Shown piece by piece: positions 8,837-37,300 of a stretch of 43,899 bases of DNA. The DNA is taken from the IMG/VR virus record IMGVR_UViG_3300037011_000696, positions 1 to 43,899 of that record; one strand, 5' to 3'. Below the pieces are notes generated by a model, which was not told the DNA's origin, made no database searches, and saw only the letters and a program-made list of their open reading frames with translations. The position numbers were made by a program, and so were the translations under genes. Within the stretch, counting starts at the first letter, position 1; every line of letters starts with the position of its first letter. This DNA comes from a virus.

Positions 8837-9463
8837 TCACTTCACCTTGCTCGTCGTCGAGAGCCAGCCGGCCGTGTGCGATGTGTCGAGCGTTGTGAAA
8901 GCGTTTGCCAGTAGGGTGATGTAGATCGCCGCGTCTGTCAGAAGCTTGGGGCTCGCGTTCCAGGCCGTCCCTGCCGCGATCATGCTGGCCAGCACAGTGG
9001 TCATGGCCGTGTCAAAGGCAGTCCCCTTGAGCAAGTAGTCCGCGCACGCGGTGGCGTCACCCCCGAGGTTGTTGGTCTTCCCGGTGGCTGGCACTACGTC
9101 CACGGCGCCATCCGCCTTCATGTGCACCTTGCCCTGGGAGCCGGAGGCCTTCGGTCCGTGCAGCGCTACCTCCGAGGCTGCAAGCGATGGGCGATGAGCG
9201 CGGTCCTGGGTGGCAACCAGGATGCCGCCCTCGCCCGAGCCACCCGCGCAGAGCATGAGGCCCTCCCCGCCCACGGGTGGACGCGAGGCGAGGCCGTACT
9301 GCTGCCAGAGCTCGGCGCCATCGAACACGTCATCGCCAGCGCCCGTGGCCTGCGTGAAGTAGTCCGTATCTGGCGCCACGGTGATCAGCACGCGCCGCAC
9401 GACGTTGTCCGCGCGCTGGATCGCCCGCTGTACTTCCTGGCGGATGAGGTCGACGATGCTCAT
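8837..9463 (-). CDS. Baseplate spike protein, Mu gp45 / gpV family
   Basis: A 208-residue protein. Its N-terminus (MSIVDLIRQEVQRAIQRAD) and the following OB-fold region match Mu gp45-type central spike proteins, which sit under the tail hub and pierce the outer membrane. The PPVGGEGLMLCAGGSGEGGI region is typical of the OB domain. A beta-rich segment follows and the C-terminal 70 residues are alanine-rich. The ATG at 9463 overlaps the stop of the gp44 hub gene. There is no obvious metal-binding HxH tip motif, so the apex may differ from that of Mu. Confidence 0.88.
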   Translation of the reverse strand: MSIVDLIRQEVQRAIQRADNVVRRVLITVAPDTDYFTQATGAGDDVFDGAELWQQYGLASRPPVGGEGLMLCAGGSGEGGILVATQDRAHRPSLAASEVALHGPKASGSQGKVHMKADGAVDVVPATGKTNNLGGDATACADYLLKGTAFDTAMTTVLASMIAAGTAWNASPKLLTDAAIYITLLANAFTTLDTSHTAGWLSTTSKVK

Positions 9464-28028: not shown

Positions 28029-28361
28029 GTGTCGCCAAAGGGTGCGCAGGCGTTGGTCGTGATCGGGAAACTGCTGCGCGAGCGCTCCTGGGTCACCGCT
28101 GCCGAGGTGTGGAAGGCGGGTGGCGGTCGGTCCATCGCGGCAGCCGGTCGGCTGCTCTCGGACCTGATGCGTCAGGGGCTGGTCCAGCTTTGGCGACACT
28201 CGACCGGCCGAGGGGCGGCGACGCGCTATCGACTCACGATCGATGGCCACAACGTGCTCGAGCTCGAGGAGCGCAACGGAACTGCTGGAGCGGATCGGAG
28301 TGGACTGGATCGGACCGGAGCGGATGGGAAGGGAACGGCAGGATCGGAATGGACCGGATAG
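28029..28361 (+). CDS. Winged-helix protein with repeat-encoded tail
   Basis: A 110-residue protein with GTG start at 28029. Residues 5-75 form a probable winged helix (LLRERSWVTAAEVWKAGG, AGRLLSDLMRQGLVQLW, wing GRGAATRYRLT). From about residue 82 the sequence is low-complexity (Gly, Asp, Arg, Thr, Ser) because the frame enters the first GGANN array. The true function is probably transcription control early in infection. The low-complexity tail may be without function. Confidence 0.7.
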   Translation: MSPKGAQALVVIGKLLRERSWVTAAEVWKAGGGRSIAAAGRLLSDLMRQGLVQLWRHSTGRGAATRYRLTIDGHNVLELEERNGTAGADRSGLDRTGADGKGTAGSEWTG

Positions 28362-28475
28362 GGTTGGACGGGAAGGGACTGGAGCGCAGTGGAAGGGAAG
28401 GGAGCGGCTTGGAACGGAACGGCAGGAACGGAGGGGAGCGGATAGGACGGGAGCGGACTGGGCTGGGTCGGAGTG
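28278..28475 (+). repeat. GGANN pentanucleotide array 1
   Basis: About 40 consecutive units of GGA plus two variable bases, with a few frame slips. It begins in the last 28 codons of the winged-helix gene and ends about 120 bp before the ATG at 28598. No gene lies in 28362-28597 other than this array and a 16-codon frame. Confidence 0.92.
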
Positions 28476-28597
28476 AACGAATGGCAGTACTGGGTTGGCG
28501 CGAGGTGGTTAGGCAAACGGCAGGAGTGTGAGCCTCATTGCTCACGGCAACTTTCAAGCGGACAGACTTCGGTCACACGCCCGCGCGGAGAAAGAAC

Positions 28598-29434
28598 ATG
28601 GCAACGAAAAAGAAGGTGGTAGAGACAAAACCACAGGGAGCGTCGAGAGTAGACATCGAGCAACCGGTCACGTTGATGGTCGCGCTCGAGATCTTCGGCA
28701 CCACATCGCTCCTGCAAAACAAGTTCAGCCAGAAGTCCCTGGAGCAGATGCTCCGCAAGCACATGGGGCTGACGGTGCAGAAGGAGGCGAAGGTTCCACG
28801 TGACTGCGTGGAGCAAGCGACGGAGCGCAATGAGGACGGCCGCGTCTGTCTGAAGCCGACCGTGTTCAAGATGGCGATGCTGAGCGCCGCCGGGCTCGTG
28901 AAGGGGCTCAAGAAGACCAACCTTCGGCTTCAGTTCTTCGTGCGCGGTCGCAGTATCCCGATCAGATGCGACCACGACCAGGTGGGGGGCGTGGCGATCT
29001 TCCCTGAGCATGGCATCCCCCAGATGGACATCGTCCGGGTCGGGATGCACATGCCCGACATCCGGTTCCGCCCGCGATTCGACAACTGGTCAGCGAAGCT
29101 CGTTATCGAGTTTTCCGACCAGCTCCCGGTCCAGACGATCGTTGACCTGCTCAACCGGGCAGGTCGAGGCGGAGTGGGTGAGTGGAGACCACAGAAGAAC
29201 GGCGAGTATGGCACCTTCAATGTCGTCCGTCACATCGCAGACCCGGACGAGATCGCCCAGGTAGAGGCGGAATGCCTGACTCCCATCCGGCCACTCGAAA
29301 TCCCACCTTGGGCCATGGACGCGGAGCTGACCCCCGAGATCCTCAAACGGCTGTCCGAGGGTGACCATGACGATGAGCGCCCGGTCGGGCCCGATGTGGA
29401 GATTGAAACCAAGACCATCGACGAGGAGGAGTAA
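28598..29434 (+). CDS. Conserved phage protein of unknown function
   Basis: A 278-residue protein. The ATG at 28598 has GGAG upstream; the frame is open for 20 codons before it. The opening has IFGTTSLLQNKFSQKSLEQM, and the core has LKPTVFKMAMLSAAGLVKGL, FFVRGRSIPI and AGRGGVGEWRPQKNGEYGTF. I recognise this as a widespread phage family (GVGEWRP-type ending) that often lies near recombination and replication genes, but no activity is established that I know of. The C-terminal 50 residues are acidic. It is followed after 3 bp by another conserved phage protein. Confidence 0.75.
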   Translation: MATKKKVVETKPQGASRVDIEQPVTLMVALEIFGTTSLLQNKFSQKSLEQMLRKHMGLTVQKEAKVPRDCVEQATERNEDGRVCLKPTVFKMAMLSAAGLVKGLKKTNLRLQFFVRGRSIPIRCDHDQVGGVAIFPEHGIPQMDIVRVGMHMPDIRFRPRFDNWSAKLVIEFSDQLPVQTIVDLLNRAGRGGVGEWRPQKNGEYGTFNVVRHIADPDEIAQVEAECLTPIRPLEIPPWAMDAELTPEILKRLSEGDHDDERPVGPDVEIETKTIDEEE

Positions 29435-29437
29435 CGC

Positions 29438-29926
29438 GTGAACTACATGACGAAGAAGGATGCATCTCTCGAGCGCCAGAAGAAAACCGAGGTGGTGGAA
29501 GGCGAGCTCGAGAAGCTCATCGTAGAGCATAAGACCATATCGGCCGAGCTAGTTGTTGGTGTCGCGTCTGACGCTGCCCACCCGCTGCACAGGTACTTCG
29601 AGTGGGATGACAGCCTGGCCGCGAGCAAGTACCGGCTCGCTCAAGCGACCTCGATGATCATGGCAACAAAGTTTGTGGTGATCCTCGCGCAGAAGGGCAA
29701 CGACCTCCCCGAGGCCAAGGGTGTCAGGCAGCAGGCCGTGGTCCGCAAACTCCTCCCGGTGGGGGACAAGCAGTTCTCCACGCGGGAGGAGGTGCTCGGG
29801 TCCGAGACCGCGCGAGCGCACATCGTGGACAAGAAACGCGGCGAGCTGCGGTCATGGTGTCGGAGCGTCGTGGACATCGACGAACTTGCACCCGAGCGCA
29901 CTGCGATAGAGACGGTCCTCGGATGA
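29438..29926 (+). CDS. Conserved phage protein with HPLHRYFEWDD motif
   Basis: A 162-residue protein, GTG start at 29438 (ATG 29447 possible); GAGGAGGA lies upstream. The AHPLHRYFEWDDSLAASKYR segment is a motif seen in many phages beside replication or recombination genes. The N-terminal 40 residues are a charged helix (LEKLIVEHKTISAELVV), and the C-terminal part (EVLGSETARAHIVDKKRGEL) is also helical. No catalytic site is visible. It probably works with the gene before it. After its stop lie 196 bp filled by GGANN array 2. Confidence 0.75.
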   Translation: MNYMTKKDASLERQKKTEVVEGELEKLIVEHKTISAELVVGVASDAAHPLHRYFEWDDSLAASKYRLAQATSMIMATKFVVILAQKGNDLPEAKGVRQQAVVRKLLPVGDKQFSTREEVLGSETARAHIVDKKRGELRSWCRSVVDIDELAPERTAIETVLG

Positions 29927-29941
29927 TCCGCACAACCGAAT

Positions 29942-30113
29942 GGAACGGAATGGTGCGGGTTGGCAGCAAGGGACAGGTGAGGACCGGAACGGAGGGGACG
30001 GGAAGGGAATGGCAGGACCGGGCAGGACCGGACAGGATTGGACTGGAACGAATCGGACGGGATCGGAAGGGACGGAACGGTCAGGAAAAAACTGGAAGGG
30101 CTGAATCGGAAAG
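29942..30113 (+). repeat. GGANN pentanucleotide array 2
   Basis: About 34 units (for example ggacc ggaac ggagg ggacg ggaag) with a few slips. It fills the space between the stop at 29926 and the ATG at 30123, ending 9 bp before that start. There is no separate Shine-Dalgarno sequence other than the GGA units. Confidence 0.92.
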
Positions 30114-30122
30114 ACGCGACGC

Positions 30123-30992
30123 ATGAGCGGCTACGCCAAACTTTTTTCGAGCATCATCACCAGCACCATCTGGGAAACGGACTCGGACACGACAAAGGTG
30201 TTCTGCACCATGCTGGCGATGGCCGACGCCAACGGCATCGTTGAGGGCTCTATCCCGGGACTGGCAACCATGGCACGGGTGCCCCTCGAGAAGGCCGAGG
30301 CTGCACTGCGCCTGCTCATGTCACCAGACCCGTACTCACGTAGCAAGGAGTGTGAGGGGCGCCGCATCGATGAGATCGATGGTGGGTGGCGGTTCATCAA
30401 CTACGAAAAATACCGCAACAAGCGCGATTCGGAAGAGAAGCGCGCCCAAGATCGCGACCGTCAGAAGCGTCACAGGATGTCACGCGTGACAAGCGTGACA
30501 GAGCGTGACGAACGTGACAGTCACGCAAAGTCACAAAAAGTCGCCCAGGCAGAGGCAGAGGCAGAGGCAATAAGAAGGGAGGAGGACGCGCGTGATCCTA
30601 GTGCTACGTACCAGGACGAGGTGCGGCAGTTAGAGCGCAACAGAGAACACCACCACCCACCACCACAACGGCATGATGACGGACACGAAAACGTAGTCCC
30701 GTGTCCGGAGTGCGGACACCCCATGCGTCTCATCCGTGGCAAGCTCGGTCCGTTCTACTGCCATCCTCGCGGTGTCGGTATGGGGTGCGAGGCCAAGTTC
30801 AACGCCGAAGACCATCGCCTTGCGGCAGACGCCGCGGCAGAGCGTAAGCGTGCGGCAGACGCCAGCGCCCCCACGCCCGATCGCCCCTGGCGCGCCATTC
30901 GACCGTCACCCCCTGAGTGCCCCAAGTGTGGCGGGCCTATCGTTGACGGCCGCTGTTACGGCCCATGCGGCGAAGCGCGGGGGAAAGCATGA
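30123..30992 (+). CDS. Replication-type HTH protein with two zinc motifs
   Basis: A 289-residue protein. Residues 1-110 resemble the N-terminal winged helix of phage replication organisers (YAKLFSSIITSTIWETDSDT, VEGSIPGLATMARVPLEKAE, GWRFINYEKYR). Residues 110-180 are charged and helical with DEKR repeats. Near residues 196-225 there is a zinc motif (CPECGHPMRLIRGKLGPFYC), and the last 25 residues hold a second (CPKCGGPIVDGRCYGPCGE). It probably binds the phage origin or primes host replisome loading; no helicase loader domain is seen. The start lies just behind GGANN array 2. Its TGA overlaps the next ATG. Confidence 0.8.
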   Translation: MSGYAKLFSSIITSTIWETDSDTTKVFCTMLAMADANGIVEGSIPGLATMARVPLEKAEAALRLLMSPDPYSRSKECEGRRIDEIDGGWRFINYEKYRNKRDSEEKRAQDRDRQKRHRMSRVTSVTERDERDSHAKSQKVAQAEAEAEAIRREEDARDPSATYQDEVRQLERNREHHHPPPQRHDDGHENVVPCPECGHPMRLIRGKLGPFYCHPRGVGMGCEAKFNAEDHRLAADAAAERKRAADASAPTPDRPWRAIRPSPPECPKCGGPIVDGRCYGPCGEARGKA

Positions 30993-31345
30993 TGGACGCG
31001 CGCTGTCAGGAATGCGTGAACGGGTACTTCGTGGGCTGGGAATTTCTGCTTCCAGCGCAGCTCTACCCAGATCCCCACTGTCCGGCAGCAACCCCCTGGT
31101 GCCCGCTCTACGAGGCGATTTTGAAGCGGGTGGGGCAGTCCATCCCCTCGGTTGCGTCCCTGCTGGCTGGCGTCCGCGCCAAGATGAAGGCCGAGCTCGA
31201 GCGGGGTGAGGTTCGCGCTCAGCCCAAGCCCGCGTGGCGTCCCAACGACGAGGAACCTCTTACGTGCCCCATTTGCTACGGCCCCCTCGTTGACGGCCAA
31301 TGCTGGAAACAATGCACCCGGCCAACGGAAAGGATAGCCCCATGA
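30989..31345 (+). CDS. Small zinc-binding protein
   Basis: A 118-residue protein. It starts with a CQEC motif in the first ten residues, has CPAATPWCPLYEA, and ends with a zinc motif CPICYGPLVDGQCWKQC. This ending is a close cousin of the C-terminus of the preceding HTH protein (CP-C-GP-VDG-C pattern). The start overlaps that gene's stop (ATGA). A role in binding nucleic acid or a partner protein is plausible; the family was not recognised. Confidence 0.7.
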   Translation: MMDARCQECVNGYFVGWEFLLPAQLYPDPHCPAATPWCPLYEAILKRVGQSIPSVASLLAGVRAKMKAELERGEVRAQPKPAWRPNDEEPLTCPICYGPLVDGQCWKQCTRPTERIAP

Positions 31346-31632
31346 CAACACCAGAAGCCCGCCCCTTCCTGCGCGACGACCTCGAATATTCGAACTTCTC
31401 GGGCTCCATGATCCGCGTGGACGGCGTCCCCTTCGCGATCGTCAGCTTCGACCGCGAACGCACCATGGGCATCGTGCTCAACGCGGACCACAAGCCCATT
31501 TTGGGCTGGAAGCGCACCGCCGAGGGCGTGCATGTCCTCGGCAAGGACGAAGCCGAGTGGAGCGGGTGGGACCTGCTCTTGACCGTGAGGCTGGCGTTAA
31601 TCGAGCTGCACGCAAACGAGGTGCGGGCATGA
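31342..31632 (+). CDS. Small hypothetical early protein
   Basis: A 96-residue protein from ATG 31342, which overlaps the preceding TGA. Alternating hydrophobic segments (VDGVPFAIVSFDRERTMGIV) suggest a beta barrel or sheet, followed by a C-terminal helix (LLLTVRLALIELHANEV). No signal, membrane segment or known motif is visible. Both junctions are ATGA overlaps, which support translation coupling in the early operon. Confidence 0.65.
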   Translation: MTTPEARPFLRDDLEYSNFSGSMIRVDGVPFAIVSFDRERTMGIVLNADHKPILGWKRTAEGVHVLGKDEAEWSGWDLLLTVRLALIELHANEVRA

Positions 31633-31868
31633 CCTACGAGAAGGCATTTCGCGTTGAGATGACGGTGCGAGTCGTCGGCAACGAAGAGCTCACCGGCACA
31701 GACGCCGAGAGGATGGCCACCGCGATCCGGGACGGCCTTCGCACCGTGGGCATCGGCATCGACGGCATCCGCGTGTTGCCACCCAATCCACCTCGCGTCT
31801 ATGGCGTTTCTCCGCTCGCCCTGGCCCTCGAGGCATGGCACCGCGAGCTGCACGAGGTGAAGCCGTGA
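31629..31868 (+). CDS. Small hypothetical early protein
   Basis: A 79-residue protein with a beta-alpha-beta pattern (AFRVEMTVRVVGNEEL, then AERMATAIRDGL, then IGIDGIRVLPPN). This is a ferredoxin-like layout of the kind seen in small regulators, but no family can be named. The ATG at 31629 overlaps the stop of the gene before, and its TGA overlaps a GTG start that follows. Confidence 0.65.
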   Translation: MTYEKAFRVEMTVRVVGNEELTGTDAERMATAIRDGLRTVGIGIDGIRVLPPNPPRVYGVSPLALALEAWHRELHEVKP

Positions 31869-32011
31869 CGCGCGTCTACGAGATCATCCGCGCCATCTTC
31901 GTGGCCTTCGTGTGCTGCATCTTTCACCGACGGCACTGGGGCGAGGTGCGCGCGAACTTCAACGGCCGGACATTCCGCTGCCGAAGGTGCGGGGAGTGGC
32001 ATTTCCGATGA
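31865..32011 (+). CDS. Very small protein with hydrophobic start and zinc pair
   Basis: A 48-residue protein (GTG 31865 to TGA 32009-32011). Residues 5-19 are hydrophobic (YEIIRAIFVAFVCCIFH). The C-terminal 12 residues hold CRRCGEWH. Both ends overlap neighbouring genes (GTGA, ATGA), which argues that it is translated. It may be a small membrane-associated peptide or a zinc knuckle; no family recognised. Confidence 0.5.
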   Translation: MTRVYEIIRAIFVAFVCCIFHRRHWGEVRANFNGRTFRCRRCGEWHFR

Positions 32012-32589
32012 GATGGATCTCACAGCTCAGCAGCAAGGCGGGCAGACGCGAGGCCGACTTTTACGCAACGCCCCCCTCTGCGCTGGCCCCGCTTCTCGAC
32101 GAATGCCCGCCCCCGATGGGGCTCGTGATCGAGCCTGCCGCTGGTGATGGCGCCATCGTGAAGGTGCTACTCGAGCGCGGGTATCGCGTCGGCGCATTCG
32201 AGTTACGCGAGCAGTGCATGCTGGACCTGGCGCCACTATGCCCGACGGCAATAGGCGACTGGCTACTGATGTCACGCGATCCTGAGTTGCTTCCGGTGGT
32301 GCCTTGGAGCATCGCCACCAACCCACCGTTTTCGATAGCGCGAGAATTCGCCGAAGCCTGCCTCGCCACGCAAGCGCAATACGTGGCGCTGCTACTGCGG
32401 ATCAACGTCGAGGCGAGCAACCCCTGGCGCAAGTTCTGGGAAGCACACCCGTGGACCAACCGAGTCGTGCTCTGGAAGAGACCCAGCTTCACGGGGCACG
32501 GCACTGACGCCTGCAACTATTTCTGGGCGATCTGGCAAAGCCGCACAAAACGGAACGGAGCGGCGGGACCGGACTGGAACGGACGGTAG
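32008..32589 (+). CDS. DNA N6-adenine methyltransferase
   Basis: A 193-residue protein. The AdoMet-binding motif I is VIEPAAGDGAIVKVLLERG near residue 39, and the catalytic motif IV is ATNPPF near residue 108, which marks an N6-adenine enzyme. Later WRKFWEAHPWTNRVVLWKR fits the target-binding side. No restriction enzyme is adjacent, so self-protection or regulation is the likely role. The start overlaps the stop of the small gene before it. The last 10 codons lie inside GGANN array 3, so the C-terminal NGAAGPDWNGR is repeat-derived. Confidence 0.88.
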   Translation: MRWISQLSSKAGRREADFYATPPSALAPLLDECPPPMGLVIEPAAGDGAIVKVLLERGYRVGAFELREQCMLDLAPLCPTAIGDWLLMSRDPELLPVVPWSIATNPPFSIAREFAEACLATQAQYVALLLRINVEASNPWRKFWEAHPWTNRVVLWKRPSFTGHGTDACNYFWAIWQSRTKRNGAAGPDWNGR

Positions 32590-32635
32590 AGGAGAGGACA
32601 GCAATGGAGAGCAACGGACTGGAATAGAACGGAGA
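32552..32635 (+). repeat. GGANN pentanucleotide array 3
   Basis: About 16 units, less regular than arrays 1 and 2. It begins in the last codons of the methyltransferase gene and ends 6 bp before the ATG at 32642. Confidence 0.85.
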
Positions 32636-32641
32636 ACACAC

Positions 32642-33394
32642 ATGAACGACACCATGACAACGCCAACAACCTACGTTCTCGATGACGTCGACGAAGGCCC
32701 CCCACCCCTCGCTCGATCCCTGCCTTGCCCCTTGTCGCAAGACGAGCTCATCGCGCTGGGCGACCAGATCGACTCGTTGATCGGGGAGGCCGAAGACCTC
32801 GAGCTGCAAGCCAAGAGCTCGGCCTCTGACTTCCGGGCGAGGCTGGCCCACGTGGCCGAGCAGATCGCCCGCCTCAGTCGCCAGCGCAAGGGTCGGACGA
32901 TCGACCGCGAGGTGGAGGTGGAGATCGTTACTGACCTCAGTCGGTGCGAAGAGGTGGTGCGACGCCTCGATACTGGCGAGATCGTCACCAAGCGCACCAT
33001 GTCGCGAGCCGAGGTTGCTGAAGCGAGACAAACAACGATCCCAGCCGTCATCAATGGAATGGAACGGCAGGAGCGGACTGGAGCGGATTGCATAGGAGCG
33101 GAAAGGGGAGGCAAGGAGGGGAATGGACCGGAGCGGAAAGGAGAGGAGAGCGACCCCTGGGCCAATGTGCCCAACGAGCTACGCACGGTACTGTGCCTCG
33201 TGGACGGGGAAGCCGAGGACTTGGTGTGCGTGGAGACCAGCACCCTCAGAGCCCTATCGCTGTATTGTAAAGAAAAGGCGATTGGCGCCTCGGACGAGCG
33301 ACGCCACAGGATCGCAACCGAGCTGGCGAAGCGCAAGCGAGTTGCACGCAAGGCACAGGATGAAGTCGGAGACGGTTCGGGGACGGGTGACTGA
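32642..33394 (+). CDS. Two-part hypothetical protein interrupted by a GGANN array
   Basis: A 250-residue reading frame. Residues 30-130 are helical, with a probable coiled coil (DQIDSLIGEAEDLELQAKSS, RLAHVAEQIARLSRQRKG). Residues 139-170 come from GGANN array 4 (MERQERTGADCIGAERGGKE). Residues 172-250 form another domain (LRTVLCLVDGEAEDLVCVET, KRVARKAQDEV). Since the other arrays end before start codons, the second part may once have been a separate gene, for example from the GTG near 33168 in the same frame, and the array now links the two. Whether the product is one protein or two is open. Confidence 0.6.
   Translation: MNDTMTTPTTYVLDDVDEGPPPLARSLPCPLSQDELIALGDQIDSLIGEAEDLELQAKSSASDFRARLAHVAEQIARLSRQRKGRTIDREVEVEIVTDLSRCEEVVRRLDTGEIVTKRTMSRAEVAEARQTTIPAVINGMERQERTGADCIGAERGGKEGNGPERKGEESDPWANVPNELRTVLCLVDGEAEDLVCVETSTLRALSLYCKEKAIGASDERRHRIATELAKRKRVARKAQDEVGDGSGTGD
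33056..33151 (+). repeat. GGANN pentanucleotide array 4 (inside a reading frame)
   Basis: About 18 units, in frame within the gene at 32642-33394. It is the only array wholly inside a longer reading frame. Confidence 0.88.
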
Positions 33395-33496
33395 ATGATC
33401 GAACCACTGCCCAATGATATGACCCTACTGCCCGGGATGCTGATCGTCGGAAGCGCAAGCGGGCGGCAAGGGCGGAGGGGTGACCGACATGGGTGA
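33395..33496 (+). CDS. Possible 33-residue peptide
   Basis: ATG at 33395 lies just after a TGA, and the TGA at 33494-33496 overlaps the start region of the next gene. The sequence begins MIEPLPNDMTLLPGMLIVG, and the second half is Gly/Arg-rich. The spacing fits the tight early operon, but there is no ribosome site and no recognised feature, so this is a weak call. Confidence 0.3.
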   Translation: MIEPLPNDMTLLPGMLIVGSASGRQGRRGDRHG

Positions 33497-33740
33497 AACC
33501 AGAATATTTGTCCTACAACGCGGATGGGTTGTGGTGGGGAAGATCGTCGAGTTGGGTCACCGGGTAAAGCTGTTTCCGGCCAGCAATATCAGACGCTGGG
33601 GAACAACGAGGGGCCTCGGCGAGCTGGCGAATGGCCCTACCGCAAAGACGGTGATTGACCCGTTGCCGTTTGGGGCCCTGTTCAACGAATTGACCGTCGT
33701 GTTGGAGATCCCCTGTGATGCAACCAAATGGACGTTCTGA
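33489..33740 (+). CDS. Small hypothetical early protein
   Basis: An 83-residue protein from ATG 33489, with GGAGG 10 bases upstream; the GTG at 33480 is too close to that site. The pattern (FVLQRGWVVVGKIVEL, then RVKLFPASNIRRWGT) is an SH3- or barrel-like series of strands. The central TRGLGELANGPT and the ending LTVVLEIPCDATKW are seen in a family of small phage proteins of unknown role. It overlaps the repeat-rich gene that follows by 23 bp. Confidence 0.65.
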   Translation: MGETRIFVLQRGWVVVGKIVELGHRVKLFPASNIRRWGTTRGLGELANGPTAKTVIDPLPFGALFNELTVVLEIPCDATKWTF

Positions 33741-34092
33741 ACTGCTGCAGCTCACCGAGTGGGATGATGGCGCCGCGATGGTAGCGGCAGACTGGCTGTG
33801 TGAGCGCGGTCATCATGTGCGGTGGCAGGCGATCAAGTGCCGGATGGCCCCAGTGCCGGACCTCGAAGCGACCGGCAACGGCTACGGCGACGGCGACGGC
33901 GACGGCTACGGCTACGGCGACGGCTACGGCAACGGCGATGGCGATGGCGACGGCTACGGCTACGGCTACGGCAACGGCGATGGCGATGGCGACGGCTACG
34001 GCTACGGCTACGGCAACGGCGATGGCGATGGCGACGGCTACGGCTACGGCCACGGCAACGGCTACGGCTACGGCTACGGCTACGGCCAATGA
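33718..34092 (+). CDS. Gly-Tyr-Asp repeat protein
   Basis: A 124-residue protein (ATG 33718; GTG 33715 possible). Residues 1-50 are an ordinary small domain (SELLQLTEWDDGAAMVAADW, HHVRWQAIKCRMAP). From residue 55 on it consists only of Gly alternating with Asp, Tyr, Asn or rarely His (GDGDGDGYGYGYGNG). Such a tail is flexible, and could bind calcium or form condensates; no function is known. The repeats are a tandem array at the DNA level. Its TGA overlaps the RusA ATG, so it belongs to the replication-recombination operon. Confidence 0.7.
   Translation: MQPNGRSELLQLTEWDDGAAMVAADWLCERGHHVRWQAIKCRMAPVPDLEATGNGYGDGDGDGYGYGDGYGNGDGDGDGYGYGYGNGDGDGDGYGYGYGNGDGDGDGYGYGHGNGYGYGYGYGQ
33928..34053 (+). 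repeat. 42-bp minisatellite, three copies, in frame
   Basis: Units at 33928-33969, 33970-34011 and 34012-34053. The first two are identical; the third has one change (TAC to CAC). Each unit encodes GNGDGDGDGYGYGY. Shorter GGCTAC-type repeats extend on both sides, from about 33880 to 34086. Confidence 0.93.
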
Positions 34093-34511
34093 CCACCGCC
34101 TGGACCACCACCTTCTTCGTCCCCGGGATCCCCCAAGCGAAGGGAAACCACCGCGCGCGCGTCGTCGGGGGCAAGCACGCCCGGCTCTACGACGCCAACC
34201 CCAAGCTGCCCGCATGGGAGAGGGCCGTTCGTTACGCCGCGATGCCCGTGCGTCCACCCTCGCTGCTCACGGGGCCCGTACAGCTCGAGCTTGTCTTCTG
34301 GGTGCCTCGGGGCAAGACCGTGAAGCGCACGTGGCCCACGAGCGCCAGAGGTGGAGACTGCGACAAGCTGGTGCGCGCAGTGGGAGACGCGCTCAAGGGC
34401 GTCGTCTACGGGGATGACTCACAGGTGGTGATCGTCGAGGCGATGAAGCGCTACGAGACCTTGACGCTCGGGCCGGGCTGCACAGTGACAGTGAGCGAGG
34501 TGGACTGGTGA
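34089..34511 (+). CDS. rusA: RusA-like Holliday junction resolvase
   Basis: A 140-residue protein. Family marks are FFVPGIPQAKGNHRARVV at the N-terminus, PVQLELVFWVPR, and the acidic catalytic motif GDCDKLVRAVGDALKG followed by VYGDDSQV, which holds the Asp residues that bind magnesium. It cuts Holliday or branched junctions during recombination and packaging. The ATG at 34089 overlaps the TGA of the repeat gene; the frame upstream reads through the 42-bp repeats as Arg-rich and is not used. It works with the ERF protein and exonuclease downstream. Confidence 0.93.
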   Translation: MTTAWTTTFFVPGIPQAKGNHRARVVGGKHARLYDANPKLPAWERAVRYAAMPVRPPSLLTGPVQLELVFWVPRGKTVKRTWPTSARGGDCDKLVRAVGDALKGVVYGDDSQVVIVEAMKRYETLTLGPGCTVTVSEVDW

Positions 34512-34894
34512 CCCTCCTCTTGCTCCTCCTCGCCAGCCAGCCCGAGCTCGGACGCGCCTCGACGTACCGACCCGGCCCCGGACTCGAGGAGCTTGCCTGC
34601 GGTGGCCGCTACACGCGCAGTCAGGTGCACGTGGCTCACCGACGCTGGCGTCAGCTGGGCTGCGGTCGCCTCGTGCTCGTCTGCGCGGAACAGACCGGCC
34701 GCTGCGCCGTGGCGCCCGTCATGGACTCGGGCCCGTGGGGGATCCGCAAGGGCAAGGCGTGGCGCTTGTGGGTGAGGCCGGGTCTACCGAAGGGCTGGCG
34801 GTGGAGTGCAGTAGCGGACCTGTCGTGGGGGCTATGGCGCAAGTTGGGCCGGCCACGAGGGAGGATAGCGCTATATACGGGGGGAGAAGCATGA
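34508..34894 (+). CDS. RlpA-like double-psi beta-barrel protein, exported
   Basis: A 128-residue protein, GTG start at 34508. The N-terminal LLLLLLASQP is a short signal sequence. The barrel has the RlpA/expansin pattern: ASTYRPGPGLEELACGGRYT, then VHVAHRRWRQLGCG, then VAPVMDSGPWGI in place of the usual VINDRGPF. RlpA barrels act on or bind peptidoglycan. Its placement between RusA and zinc proteins in the early operon, away from the lysis genes at 40.8-43.5 kb, is unusual. It could alter the wall early in infection or exclude other phages; this is inference. Confidence 0.75.
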   Translation: MTLLLLLLASQPELGRASTYRPGPGLEELACGGRYTRSQVHVAHRRWRQLGCGRLVLVCAEQTGRCAVAPVMDSGPWGIRKGKAWRLWVRPGLPKGWRWSAVADLSWGLWRKLGRPRGRIALYTGGEA

Positions 34895-35103
34895 AGTGCA
34901 TATTCTGCGGCGCAACCTTTTGGCGATCCCCTCCGAGGGTGCCAGCATGCCTGGAATGGTCCGAGGTGTGCTGGCACTGCTCGGGGGTTTTGCTCAAGCG
35001 CGCGAGGGGCTGTGATGTACCGCAAGAGCCACGAGCGGGTGTGTCTGTGGTGCGGGAGAAGCTTCCTGGCCGTGACGGAGAGGGCCACGTGCTGCCCCGC
35101 TGA
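34891..35103 (+). CDS. Small zinc-ribbon protein
   Basis: A 70-residue protein starting at ATG 34891 in overlap with the preceding stop. CIFC and, 24 residues later, CWHC form a probable zinc ribbon. The last 30 residues overlap in another frame with the next small zinc protein, so that tail may be incidental. Confidence 0.55.
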   Translation: MKCIFCGATFWRSPPRVPACLEWSEVCWHCSGVLLKRARGCDVPQEPRAGVSVVREKLPGRDGEGHVLPR

Positions 35104-35185
35104 GAAGTGCATCGCCGCGCAGAGGGCAGCTCAGAGGCGCAGACAGCGGGCGAGACGGAAGGGGGAAGGGAGGGTCAGTCGGTGA
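35015..35185 (+). CDS. Small zinc-binding, basic protein
   Basis: A 56-residue protein (ATG 35015). It has CLWCGRSF, then CCPAEKC, and ends in an Arg-rich helix (AAQRRRQRARRKGEGR), a common phage zinc-finger layout (CxxC...C). It overlaps the preceding gene by 89 bp and the RHH gene on the other strand by 11 bp, tail to tail. The strong motif layout makes me prefer this frame where the two compete. Confidence 0.6.
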   Translation: MYRKSHERVCLWCGRSFLAVTERATCCPAEKCIAAQRAAQRRRQRARRKGEGRVSR

Positions 35186-35378
35186 GCCCGAGTTTCGGGA
35201 AAAGGTGGTCTGTGAGCACTTGTCGTACAAGGTCTGACACCGAAACGATGGCTCCGGCACTTGAGCGTCGGAAGGCCTCCTCCGTCAACGCTTGCTTTTC
35301 TTCAATGGTTACAGCCACTTGTATCTGTGCGGGTCTTGGGACTTTCCCCTTTGGTTTCTTGGGCATAGGCGCCTCCAT
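35175..35378 (-). CDS. Ribbon-helix-helix repressor-like protein
   Basis: A 67-residue protein. After a basic start (PKKPKGKVPRP) comes an RHH pattern: strand AQIQVAVTI, helix EKQALTEEAFRRS, and helix VSDLVRQVLTDHLF. It is transcribed against the early genes and diverges from 35463. A perfect palindrome (TTTGTCA-T-TGACAAA, 35422-35436) that covers the -35 of the rightward promoter is the natural operator. It may repress both directions. A minus-strand promoter may be formed by TTGACG (35408-35413) and TAAGAA (35385-35390) with 17 bp between them. Confidence 0.78.
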   Translation of the reverse strand: MEAPMPKKPKGKVPRPAQIQVAVTIEEKQALTEEAFRRSSAGAIVSVSDLVRQVLTDHLFPKLGLTD

Positions 35379-35421
35379 ACTTTCTTCTTACCACACCAAC
35401 GGGCGAACGTCAATGGCGTCT

Positions 35422-35456
35422 TTTGTCATTGACAAATGAACCACGTATGCTAGTAT
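35422..35456 (+). promoter_or_regulatory. Promoter with operator palindrome over the -35
   Basis: TTGACA at 35429-35434 and TAGTAT at 35451-35456, spacer 16 bp, with an extended TGC before the -10. The palindrome TTTGTCATTGACAAA (35422-35436) includes the -35. The ATG at 35463 is about where transcription should start, so the message may be leaderless. Confidence 0.75.
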
Positions 35457-35462
35457 TAAAGT

Positions 35463-35654
35463 ATGGGACGAACAAAGACAGCAACCAACACCGCCTCCAC
35501 CCACTGGGCCCGCCCCGTGACGCTGCTCGACCGCTTCGGGGCCATTCGCGGCCGCTACGCCACCGAGAGACAGGCCCGCGCGGCCGCCAAACGCGCTGGG
35601 ATCGCCCTCGCCCCGAAGCCCCGCCCCGCCACCCTGAACCTGAGGAGCATCTGA
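35463..35654 (+). CDS. Small basic protein, possibly from a leaderless message
   Basis: A 63-residue basic protein. The core TLLDRFGAIRGRYATERQAR and a helix RAAAKRAGIAL suggest a small DNA- or protein-binding fold, but no family is recognised. The ATG is only 7 bp beyond the -10 box, with no room for a Shine-Dalgarno site. Its TGA overlaps the ATG of the next gene. It is the first gene of the second early transcription unit. Confidence 0.65.
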   Translation: MGRTKTATNTASTHWARPVTLLDRFGAIRGRYATERQARAAAKRAGIALAPKPRPATLNLRSI

Positions 35655-35893
35655 TGAAGATGGAGTTCGGTATCCGCTGGACCTACTTTGACCGTAACAG
35701 CCGCACCGTGACGAAGGAGAGGTTCTTCCGCACCGAGCGGGCGCGTGACCGCTTCGCCGACAAGGTGATGGCGGAGGACAACTTCTTCCGGATCGAGGCG
35801 TTCTGCGACTCCGCAAGTCTCGCCCGCTTCAACGCGATCGTGGTGACCGGTGAGCTCACCGCGGGAAACCCGCCTGACGTGGAGGTGCTGTAA
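35654..35893 (+). CDS. Small hypothetical early protein
   Basis: A 79-residue protein, ATG at 35654 with GAGGAG upstream. The pattern of aromatic strands and a helix (FGIRWTYFDRNSRTVTKERF, then ARDRFADKVMAEDNFFRIEA) fits a small beta-alpha domain common in phage early regions. Function is unknown. It is joined to both neighbours by overlapping stop and start codons. Confidence 0.7.
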   Translation: MKMEFGIRWTYFDRNSRTVTKERFFRTERARDRFADKVMAEDNFFRIEAFCDSASLARFNAIVVTGELTAGNPPDVEVL

Positions 35894-36252
35894 TGAGAAC
35901 CGGAGCCCTTCGCAGACCCAGCCCCTGCAAGTCTTGGCCCCGCAATGCCGACCTGCCCCGCGAGTACTGGGAAGAGCGCAGCCGCGAGCTGGATGCCCAG
36001 TACGGGCCAGCCACGGGCGAAGACGATGACCTGCCGTGGGACCCCCCGCCCGCTCCAGGGCCCAAGACCATCGAGGAGAAGGCACGCGAGATGGCGAAGA
36101 TCGGGCGATGGATGAGCGACTTCCTGAAGGCCAACCCGGGGAGCACGGCTGACGAGCTCGCCCACGAGGCCAGCCGCACCTTTCACGTGCCGTGCACCCC
36201 GCAGCTCAAGAGCCAGGCCGCGATATGCATCGACCCCTTTATGGATCTTTGA
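35893..36252 (+). CDS. Small hypothetical early protein
   Basis: A 119-residue protein, ATG 35893 in a TAATG overlap with the gene before. Residues 30-65 are acidic and Pro-rich (EDDDLPWDPPPAPGP). The C-terminal half is helical (TIEEKAREMAKIGRWMSDFL, ADELAHEASRTFHV), perhaps a DNA-binding HTH-like fold. No family recognised. It ends 3 bp before GGANN array 5. Confidence 0.65.
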   Translation: MRTGALRRPSPCKSWPRNADLPREYWEERSRELDAQYGPATGEDDDLPWDPPPAPGPKTIEEKAREMAKIGRWMSDFLKANPGSTADELAHEASRTFHVPCTPQLKSQAAICIDPFMDL

Positions 36253-36254
36253 GT

Positions 36255-36394
36255 GGAACGGATAGGACTGGCGAGGACGGGATAGGAACGGATTGGATTG
36301 GAAGGGACTGGACTGGCTGGAAAGGAATGGAGCGTACAGGGAAGGACGGGAGCGGATTGGAGTGCAGCGAAGCGGAATGGACTGGAAAGGAGAG
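36255..36394 (+). repeat. GGANN pentanucleotide array 5
   Basis: About 27 units (ggaac ggata ggact and so on). It fills the space between the stop at 36252 and the ERF start at 36398. The last units, ggaaa ggaga, lie where a Shine-Dalgarno site would be. Confidence 0.92.
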
Positions 36395-36397
36395 ACG

Positions 36398-37300
36398 ATG
36401 AGCAAAGAAACCGCGATCGAGATCAAACGCTCGGAACCCGCCGCAGCGACCAATGTCGAGTTGCCGGTGGCGCTCGTCCACCTGGCGCTTGAGAAGGGGG
36501 CCGATGCTGCCACCCTCGAGCGCTTGATGGCACTGCATGAGCGCCACGAAACAAACGAGGCGCGCAAGGCGTTCACGCGTGCCATGGCCGCGTTCAAGGC
36601 GGAGTGCCCGGCCGTCCTGCGCAAAGACGCCACCGTGCGCTTCGGAAACACATCGTACCGTCATGCGACCCTCGGTGCCATCATCGACGAGATCACCCCG
36701 TACCTCAGCAAACACGGTCTATCGATCGGCTGGGAACATGCACAGACAAACGGCGAGGTAAAGGTCACCTGTTGGGTGACTCACGTGCTCGGTCATCGGG
36801 AGGGGACGACTCTGTCCGCTCCACCGGATGCGAGTGGGCAGAAGAACAAGATACAGCAGATCGGCTCGAGCGTGAGCTACTTGTCGCGCTACACCGCTCT
36901 TGCCTTGCTCGGCCTGAGCACCGCCGAGATGGACGATGACGGCCAGGCTGCGGGCAAGCGCCCCGAGGAGCCCCCACCTCCTGAGCCTGAGCCTGCCCCG
37001 AGGGGTGAGGCCACGAAGCCCCCCAGCCCCCCGAAGACGAACGGGGGATCGCAGACCAAGGGCTCGCGCGCCAAGGCAGCGGTAGCCGCGTACGCCGCGC
37101 TTGGCGTGCTCCAGGAGGACCTCGAGACGTGGCTGGGTGCGACCACGGGAGCCCCCCCGCTGCCCGTGGAGCAGTGGGCAGACGCGGACCTCGAGGATCT
37201 CACCACGCGCTACAAGGAGCTGAAGAAGCTCGTGGGCCCGGCGAGACAGAAGCGTGTGCGCGAGATCTTCGGGTTGCCCGCAAGCGCCGTGGAGGGATGA
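36398..37300 (+). CDS. erf: ERF-family single-strand annealing protein
   Basis: A 300-residue protein. The ERF core is clear: TNEARKAFTRAMAAFKAECP, the NTSYRHATLGAIIDEITPYL segment, then VTCWVTHVLGHREG and IQQIGSSVSYLSRYTALALL. A Pro-rich linker follows (residues 190-225), then a C-terminal domain that ends with RQKRVREIFGLPAS. ERF proteins anneal complementary single strands and support phage recombination and circularisation. The frame is open upstream through array 5, but the ATG at 36398 with ggaga before it is the natural start. RusA and the exonuclease complete the recombination set. Confidence 0.93.
   Translation: MSKETAIEIKRSEPAAATNVELPVALVHLALEKGADAATLERLMALHERHETNEARKAFTRAMAAFKAECPAVLRKDATVRFGNTSYRHATLGAIIDEITPYLSKHGLSIGWEHAQTNGEVKVTCWVTHVLGHREGTTLSAPPDASGQKNKIQQIGSSVSYLSRYTALALLGLSTAEMDDDGQAAGKRPEEPPPPEPEPAPRGEATKPPSPPKTNGGSQTKGSRAKAAVAAYAALGVLQEDLETWLGATTGAPPLPVEQWADADLEDLTTRYKELKKLVGPARQKRVREIFGLPASAVEG

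What the first reader, a model, noticed from the sequence alone, without database searches (positions are those of the whole stretch)
28278..36394. Five GGANN pentanucleotide arrays in the early operon
At 28278-28475, 29942-30113, 32552-32635, 33056-33151 and 36255-36394 the plus strand is made of GGA plus two variable bases, repeated in 5-base steps with few slips. All five have the same orientation as transcription, and three end within 10 bp of an ATG. No other part of the window has this pattern. Two units make one helical turn, so GGA would recur on one DNA face. In RNA, GGA repeats can act as stacked Shine-Dalgarno or CsrA/RsmA-type sites (A-N-GGA consensus), as a sponge for such a protein, or as G-quadruplexes. 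As DNA they could be boundary linkers that help ERF-type recombination swap early modules. I know of no described phage element of this form.
Basis: partly seen in the sequence, partly recalled or inferred. Interest (0 to 1): 0.9.

Follow-up and report, generated by a model that had tools for sequence, protein, structure and literature searches.

The report
Phage VIPR guide arrays, GGA variant
The odd five-base GGA repeats are guide-RNA genes of a recently described phage weapon (VIPR), in which a small CRISPR-like protein uses the two variable bases of each repeat to find rival phage DNA; one guide here reads out as aimed at rivals' recombination gene, erf.

Summary
The five GGANN arrays are real (11 of 12 phased GGA units in a window; at most 5 in 100 dinucleotide shuffles). 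They are not Shine-Dalgarno ladders, CsrA sponges or recombination linkers. They are guide-RNA (vrRNA) genes of a VIPR system, described in a 2026 preprint. The gene between arrays 1 and 2 (28598-29434) belongs to phrog_4652, the Vipr family: its profile hits the solved SUSP1 Vipr (E=6.5e-39) and its predicted fold is a CRISPR RAMP. Vipr homologs occur in 49 of 57 GGANN-array viral loci against 1 of 112 control loci. The arrays parse into about nine guides of 8-16 units. Published VIPRs and eight GenBank Vipr phages read here use GGY; this phage and the other IMG/VR contigs use GGA, and a Vipr tree shows the third base changed at least twice. Read with the published 1-nt skip rule, guide 5a, 84 bp before erf, spells TYL[DE]RYT[FL][FL][SR]LL. 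It beats 400 shuffles on nine ERF genes, only at skip 1, and all six exact sites of its first nine units in IMG/VR lie in frame in ERF genes. Guides 3 and 4 point, more weakly, to ORF 32642 homologs. Known kind, new variant; RNA expression and activity untested.

The parts
28598..29434 (+). vipr gene: RAMP protein (phrog_4652), 278 aa
   Evidence: phrog_4652 E=1.2e-14; family profile hits SUSP1 Vipr 36pp_D E=6.5e-39 and Csm5 E=7e-4; AF2 model pLDDT 83.6, best PDB matches are CRISPR RAMP complexes, best E=9.6e-6; SUSP2 Vipr is phrog_4652 E=1.4e-96. The window protein alone hits 36pp only at E=0.018
29438..29926 (+). candidate vap (vipr accessory) gene, phrog_15946
   Evidence: phrog_15946 E=3e-14; homologs in 17 of 57 array loci vs 1 of 112 controls; the same family lies next to Vipr in Mycobacterium phage Donkeykong; no Pfam or PDB match
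28287..28336 (+). guide 1a, 10 units: GC TC GT CT TC CC GC TG AG AC
   Evidence: parsed; overlaps the 3' end of ORF 28029-28361; target unknown
28341..28420 (+). guide 1b, 16 units: TC AT CC TA TT CG AG CT GC GT AG AG GC TT AC AC
   Evidence: separated from 1a by GGCA; target unknown
28425..28474 (+). guide 1c, at least 10 units: AC GG GC TA CG GC CT CT TC GT
   Evidence: target unknown
29971..30010 (+). guide 2a, about 8 units (start unclear): CA GA CC AC GG CG AG AT
   Evidence: target unknown
30015..30074 (+). guide 2b, 12 units: CC CA CC CA TT CT AC TC CG TC AG CG
   Evidence: intergenic between vap and the gene at 30123; target unknown
32566..32635 (+). guide 3, 14 units: CC CT AC CG GA GA CA AT GA AC CT AT AC GA
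   Evidence: best match in the whole window under skip 1 is ORF 32642 at 32747, in frame, 19/28 (0 of 500 shuffles reach it in that gene, P=0.22 over the whole window): tentative
33070..33149 (+). guide 4, 16 units: GC CT GC TT TA GC AA GA AA GG AT CC GC AA GA GA; in frame inside ORF 32642-33394
   Evidence: best of about 9000 ORFs at peptide level is its own ORF (53; shuffled maxima at most 46); 23/32 at 33251, P=0.02 over the window
36255..36314 (+). guide 5a, 12 units: AC TA CT GA CG TA AC TT TT AG CT CT; predicted target erf of rival phages
   Evidence: in-frame match at the TYLERYTLL motif of ERF genes; only skip 1; 0 of 400 shuffles as good
36319..36393 (+). guide 5b, 15 units; overlaps the ribosome-binding site of erf; target unknown
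   Evidence: ERF as target not supported (148 vs shuffled mean 148.9)
32642..33394 (+). ORF of unknown function interrupted in frame by guide 4; presumed own allele of the target of guides 3 and 4
   Evidence: no homolog found
36398..37300 (+). own erf (single-strand annealing protein), diverged from the guide 5a target (14/24 NN bases match)
   Evidence: PF04404 E=6e-17, phrog_155 E=2e-38

Best explanation
This is a VIPR (Viral Interference Programmable Repeat) system of a myovirus. The early operon is transcribed through the arrays. Vipr, a RAMP-fold protein, binds the array RNA, probably one subunit per 5-nt repeat holding the GGA. The exposed NN dinucleotides pair with target DNA with one target base skipped between pairs (NNxNNx), which in coding targets is the codon wobble position. 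The RNP then represses the target gene in competing phages or prophages. At least one guide (5a) is aimed at the erf recombinase gene of rivals; own erf differs enough to be spared. Shown here: arrays, the Vipr family link, the RAMP fold prediction, and the skip-1 match to ERF genes. Inferred: transcription and processing, RNP assembly, DNA binding, repression.
For: Family profile hits the solved SUSP1 Vipr; RAMP fold. Vipr homologs in 49 of 57 array loci vs 1 of 112 controls, four more found elsewhere in the same contigs, many within 100 bp of an array. Guide lengths, mostly 9-13 units, fit the published 9-16. L133 and L208: 7 differences in one array, all at NN, none at GGA, with the 3' 1000 bp identical. 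Guide 5a on nine ERF genes: sum 145 vs shuffled 119.2 +/- 2.8, max 130; skips 0, 2, 3 give only 12-15 of 24; best of 118 real guides. All 6 IMG/VR sites of its first nine units are ERF genes in frame, 19-20 of 24. Published mechanism: PMC13142463.
Against: Triplet is GGA, not the published GGY (main text allows 'a related consensus'; its supplement was not readable here). No conserved 3' tail, promoter or terminator found for these arrays, and some overlap coding sequence. Only one of about nine guides has a firm target family, and no natural target with all 24 bases was found. The window Vipr hits the solved Vipr only weakly on its own (E=0.018).
Confidence: 0.9

Rival explanations
1. The arrays are ribosome- or CsrA/RsmA-binding ladders (stacked GGA sites) that regulate translation of the early operon or sponge a host regulator.
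For: GGA core, same strand as transcription, three arrays end within 10 bp of an ATG; guide 5b overlaps the erf ribosome-binding site.
Against: Relatives use GGC or GGT at the same place, which would destroy GGA sites; arrays follow the Vipr gene across viral contigs of 33-66% GC; strict 5-nt period and NN information are unexplained; array 4 lies inside an ORF.
Confidence: 0.04
2. The arrays are DNA-level recombination linkers or selfish simple repeats that spread by slippage.
For: Repeats sit at gene borders and next to erf; blocks recur within some contigs (L121).
Against: NN bases are near random (entropy up to 3.9 of 4 bits), not slipped copies; one-strand orientation; differences between near-identical phages only at NN; decoded ERF target.
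Confidence: 0.02
3. VIPR system, but the GGA clade works differently (RNA targeting or another skip length).
For: GGA instead of GGY; no tail found; most guides have no assigned target.
Against: Guide 5a matches ERF genes only with a 1-nt skip.
Confidence: 0.08

Closest known systems
VIPR system of Escherichia phage SUSP1 (PMC13142463; solved Vipr 36pp); its relative SUSP2 was read here (L218)
   Same: phrog_4652 Vipr RAMP gene, accessory gene directly behind it, arrays of pentanucleotide repeats flanking them, hypervariable NN, coding-sequence targets with the wobble skipped
   Different: SUSP-type uses GGT/GGC, its arrays end in a conserved 3' tail and lie between genes, and its accessory gene is phrog_5926; the window uses GGA, no tail was found, arrays overlap genes, and the accessory gene is phrog_15946
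Vipr locus of Mycobacterium phage Donkeykong (L225)
   Same: Vipr plus phrog_15946 accessory gene, arrays next to them
   Different: all 54 array triplets counted are GGC, none GGA
Class 1 CRISPR-Cas RAMP effectors (Csm3, Cas7 of type VII)
   Same: predicted fold, G-rich loop region, protein filament on a guide RNA
   Different: no CRISPR repeats or cas genes; guide is read noncontiguously with a 5-nt period
TRAP protein with (G/U)AGNN repeats (from memory)
   Same: triplet plus two spacer bases, 5-nt period
   Different: unrelated ring protein regulating trp genes; the spacer bases carry no target information

Membership tests
VIPR | Vipr RAMP homolog encoded in the locus | tested here: met
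   phrog_4652 E=1.2e-14; profile to 36pp E=6.5e-39; RAMP fold
VIPR | arrays of 9-16 pentanucleotide repeats with hypervariable NN near vipr | tested here: met
   eight of nine window blocks have 10-16 units
VIPR | triplet consensus GGY (or 'a related consensus') | tested here: inconclusive
   window is GGA; whether GGA is among the related consensuses of fig. S17 could not be read
VIPR | accessory vap gene | tested here: met
   phrog_15946 directly behind vipr, as in Donkeykong; function unknown
VIPR | NN bases match phage targets with a 1-nt skip, wobble at the skipped base | tested here: met
   guide 5a on ERF genes; other guides weak or unassigned
VIPR | structured 3' tail on the vrRNA (type II) | tested here: inconclusive
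   no shared tail seen by eye between the window arrays and no Rfam match; not folded systematically; tail is described for type II
VIPR | vrRNA expressed and bound by Vipr; dsDNA binding; repression | not testable with these tools
   needs RNA-seq, pull-down and reporter assays
CsrA/RsmA sponge | GGA core conserved among relatives | tested here: not met
   related loci have GGC or GGT
CRISPR-Cas | CRISPR repeats with contiguous spacers and cas genes | tested here: not met
   no such repeats seen in the early region and no cas genes among the window proteins scanned

The most novel reading that the evidence does not exclude
In this phage the guides are placed next to, or inside, the phage's own diverged copy of the gene they attack (5a before erf; 3 before and 4 inside ORF 32642; a like case in L179). 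Each such pair would be a self-immune allele plus a weapon against rival alleles, letting the phage silence a competitor's version of a module while its own keeps working.
Probability: 0.3. Interest if true: 0.82.

Novelty: new variant of a known kind. Interest (0 to 1): 0.63.

Why it matters
VIPR is a months-old class of RNA-guided system proposed as a forerunner of CRISPR. This case shows the code in a GGA form in many viral contigs, with the third triplet base having switched more than once, so the protein determinant of triplet choice can be sought by comparing close Viprs. It independently supports the 1-nt skip rule in a distant clade, names a new kind of target (the erf recombinase), and gives a concrete reading of how a phage may spare its own allele.

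Tried and rejected
Matching 190 guides against the 2 Mb of loci in hand under skips 0-3 had no power. A genome-collection scan for guide 5a gave one hit, outside ERF and out of frame, so chance; stricter viral scans gave none. Scanning 194 guides of other contigs for matches within 2.5 kb showed no general excess at any skip, so 'guide next to its target homolog' is not a general rule. Guide 5b on ERF not supported. Guide 4 also has one 20-base exact site in an IMG/VR ORF (L239, ALAFYANDNG), but about 0.1 such sites are expected by chance on my estimate of the collection size. Other window guides against homologs of window genes: nothing above noise. Single-sequence structure prediction failed (pLDDT 33); the alignment-based one worked. 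ORF 32642 has no homologs in IMG/VR by peptide pattern or in GenBank phages. Decoded peptides against PHROGs and Pfam: only guide 5a gave a hit, Erf-like phrog_2324 at E=0.58; some ambiguous residues were my choice, so this is weak. Short GGAAG-type repeats found by the first scan are low-variety runs and were left out as a different class.

Full report
Observation. The five arrays exist at the stated coordinates, on the + strand only. A phased count reaches 11 of 12 GGA units; 100 dinucleotide shuffles never exceed 5. The window is a 43,899-base IMG/VR virus record, a myovirus by its tail sheath, portal, tape measure and terminase genes, 63% G+C, with no near relative among GenBank phages for the 9.5-kb region searched.

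Not unique. A scan of IMG/VR with a pattern that demands variety in NN gave 81 stretches. A run detector left 57 loci with 125 arrays of high NN variety, in contigs of 33 to 66% G+C, all arrays of a contig on one strand but for one. Many lie just upstream of a start codon or between genes. Several loci are copies of the same phage, so independent cases are fewer than 57.

The associated gene. Iterated profile searches with the window's early proteins, arrays masked, found homologs of the 28598-29434 protein in 49 of 57 array loci and in 1 of 112 control loci; the 29438-29926 protein in 17 against 1; ERF, RusA and methyltransferase were not linked. Four more array contigs carry the gene elsewhere in the record. 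The gene is often within 100 bp of an array. The family profile hits the solved 'SUSP1 Vipr protein' (36pp, E=6.5e-39) and Csm5/Csm4. An alignment-based model (pLDDT 83.6) has CRISPR RAMP complexes as its best PDB matches. All Viprs tested from GenBank phages fall in phrog_4652, the family of the window gene.

What is known. PMC13142463 describes VIPR: Vipr plus vrRNAs of 9-16 repeats, GGY alternating with NN; the NN bases pair with dsDNA, skipping one target base between dinucleotides, often the codon wobble; targets are competing phages; seven types, 'GGY/NN motifs, or a related consensus'. The main text does not mention GGA, and no other paper in the library uses these terms.

The GGA variant. 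SUSP2, LESphi2, Gordonia phages MakoManhole, UmaThurman, ODay and Trine and Mycobacterium phages LittleE and Donkeykong carry GGC or GGT arrays. On a Vipr tree the label needs three changes, at least two forced by well-supported branches; the IMG/VR set was chosen for GGA, so frequencies mean nothing, and one row labelled GGA (L108) has no array in hand. Within the group that shares the phrog_15946 accessory gene, Donkeykong has GGC in 54 of 54 triplets and the window has GGA.

NN evolves, GGA does not. L133 and L208 share 1000 of 1000 bases downstream and 977 of 1000 upstream of one array. The arrays, 12 units each, differ at 7 bases, all in NN. This looks like retargeting.

Decoding the window. 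The arrays parse into nine blocks of 8-16 units, parted by GGCA, GGCT or longer slips. Under the 1-nt skip rule each NN is the first two bases of a codon. Guide 5a gives T Y L [DE] R Y T [FL][FL][SR] L L. In own erf it matches SYLSRYTALALL. In ERF genes of Cyanophage Cy-LDV1, Bradyrhizobium, Vibrio, Xanthomonas, Paracoccus and Thalassomonas phages and IMG/VR contigs, the best site is always this motif, in frame. Summed over nine ERF genes the match is 145 against 119.2 +/- 2.8 for shuffled units (maximum 130 of 400); skips 0, 2 and 3 give no more than 15 of 24 in any gene; no other of 118 real guides does as well. The pattern of its first nine units occurs at six places in IMG/VR, all in ERF genes, in frame, with 19-20 of 24 NN bases. 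Caveat: an exact natural target was not found, and the homologs are not independent.

Guides 3 and 4. Guide 4, inside ORF 32642, has as its best peptide match among about 9000 ORFs that same ORF (ALSLYCKEKAIGASDE; 53 against shuffled maxima of at most 46), and at DNA level its best match in the window (23 of 32, P=0.02). Guide 3, just upstream, has its best window match in the same ORF (19 of 28; P=0.22 over the window, 0 of 500 in the gene). No homolog of this ORF was found, so the reading is tentative.

Own allele beside the guide. In the window, three guides sit next to or in the own version of the gene they appear to attack. In L179 a guide matches 19 of 22 NN bases 115 bp upstream of itself, at the C-terminal end of a reading frame. 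Over 194 guides in other contigs there is no general excess. So this is a hypothesis for some guides, not a rule.

Verdict. A VIPR system of a GGA variant, with the erf gene of rivals as the best-supported target of one guide. Transcription, RNP formation and activity are inferred from the published relatives.

Noticed in passing
window 33880-34090: ORF 33715-34092 ends in a long 6-base-period repeat encoding (GY/GD/GN)n; a low-complexity glycine-rich tail, unrelated to the arrays.
   Followed up: no
L179 minus strand, 9134-9304 (0-based on that strand): The only array on the strand opposite to the others of its contig; its guide matches 19 of 22 NN bases 115 bp upstream of itself, at the end of a reading frame (SPILLKT*).
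   Followed up: partly
L172 array at 897: A guide whose last units spell ACACSAI, like the conserved KKCACSAI motif of Vipr itself: possibly aimed at a rival VIPR system.
   Followed up: partly
L021, L028, L047, L056, L117 and many other loci: A second repeat class: about seven GGAAG/GGAAA units right after short direct repeats such as TCACTGAGGACTCACGGAGGACTCACCCCC, in contigs of widely differing G+C; not linked to Vipr.
   Followed up: no
L121 and L167, arrays of 0.9-1.3 kb: Very long arrays (about 20 blocks in L121), most blocks ending GGAAAGGAACGGCTGTA; the two contigs share flanks and a Vipr of equal score but have different guides.
   Followed up: partly
L164 6641-7125, L133 6783-6957, L221 4140-4520: tRNA-like sequences directly follow or separate guide arrays, possibly as RNA processing sites.
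   Followed up: no
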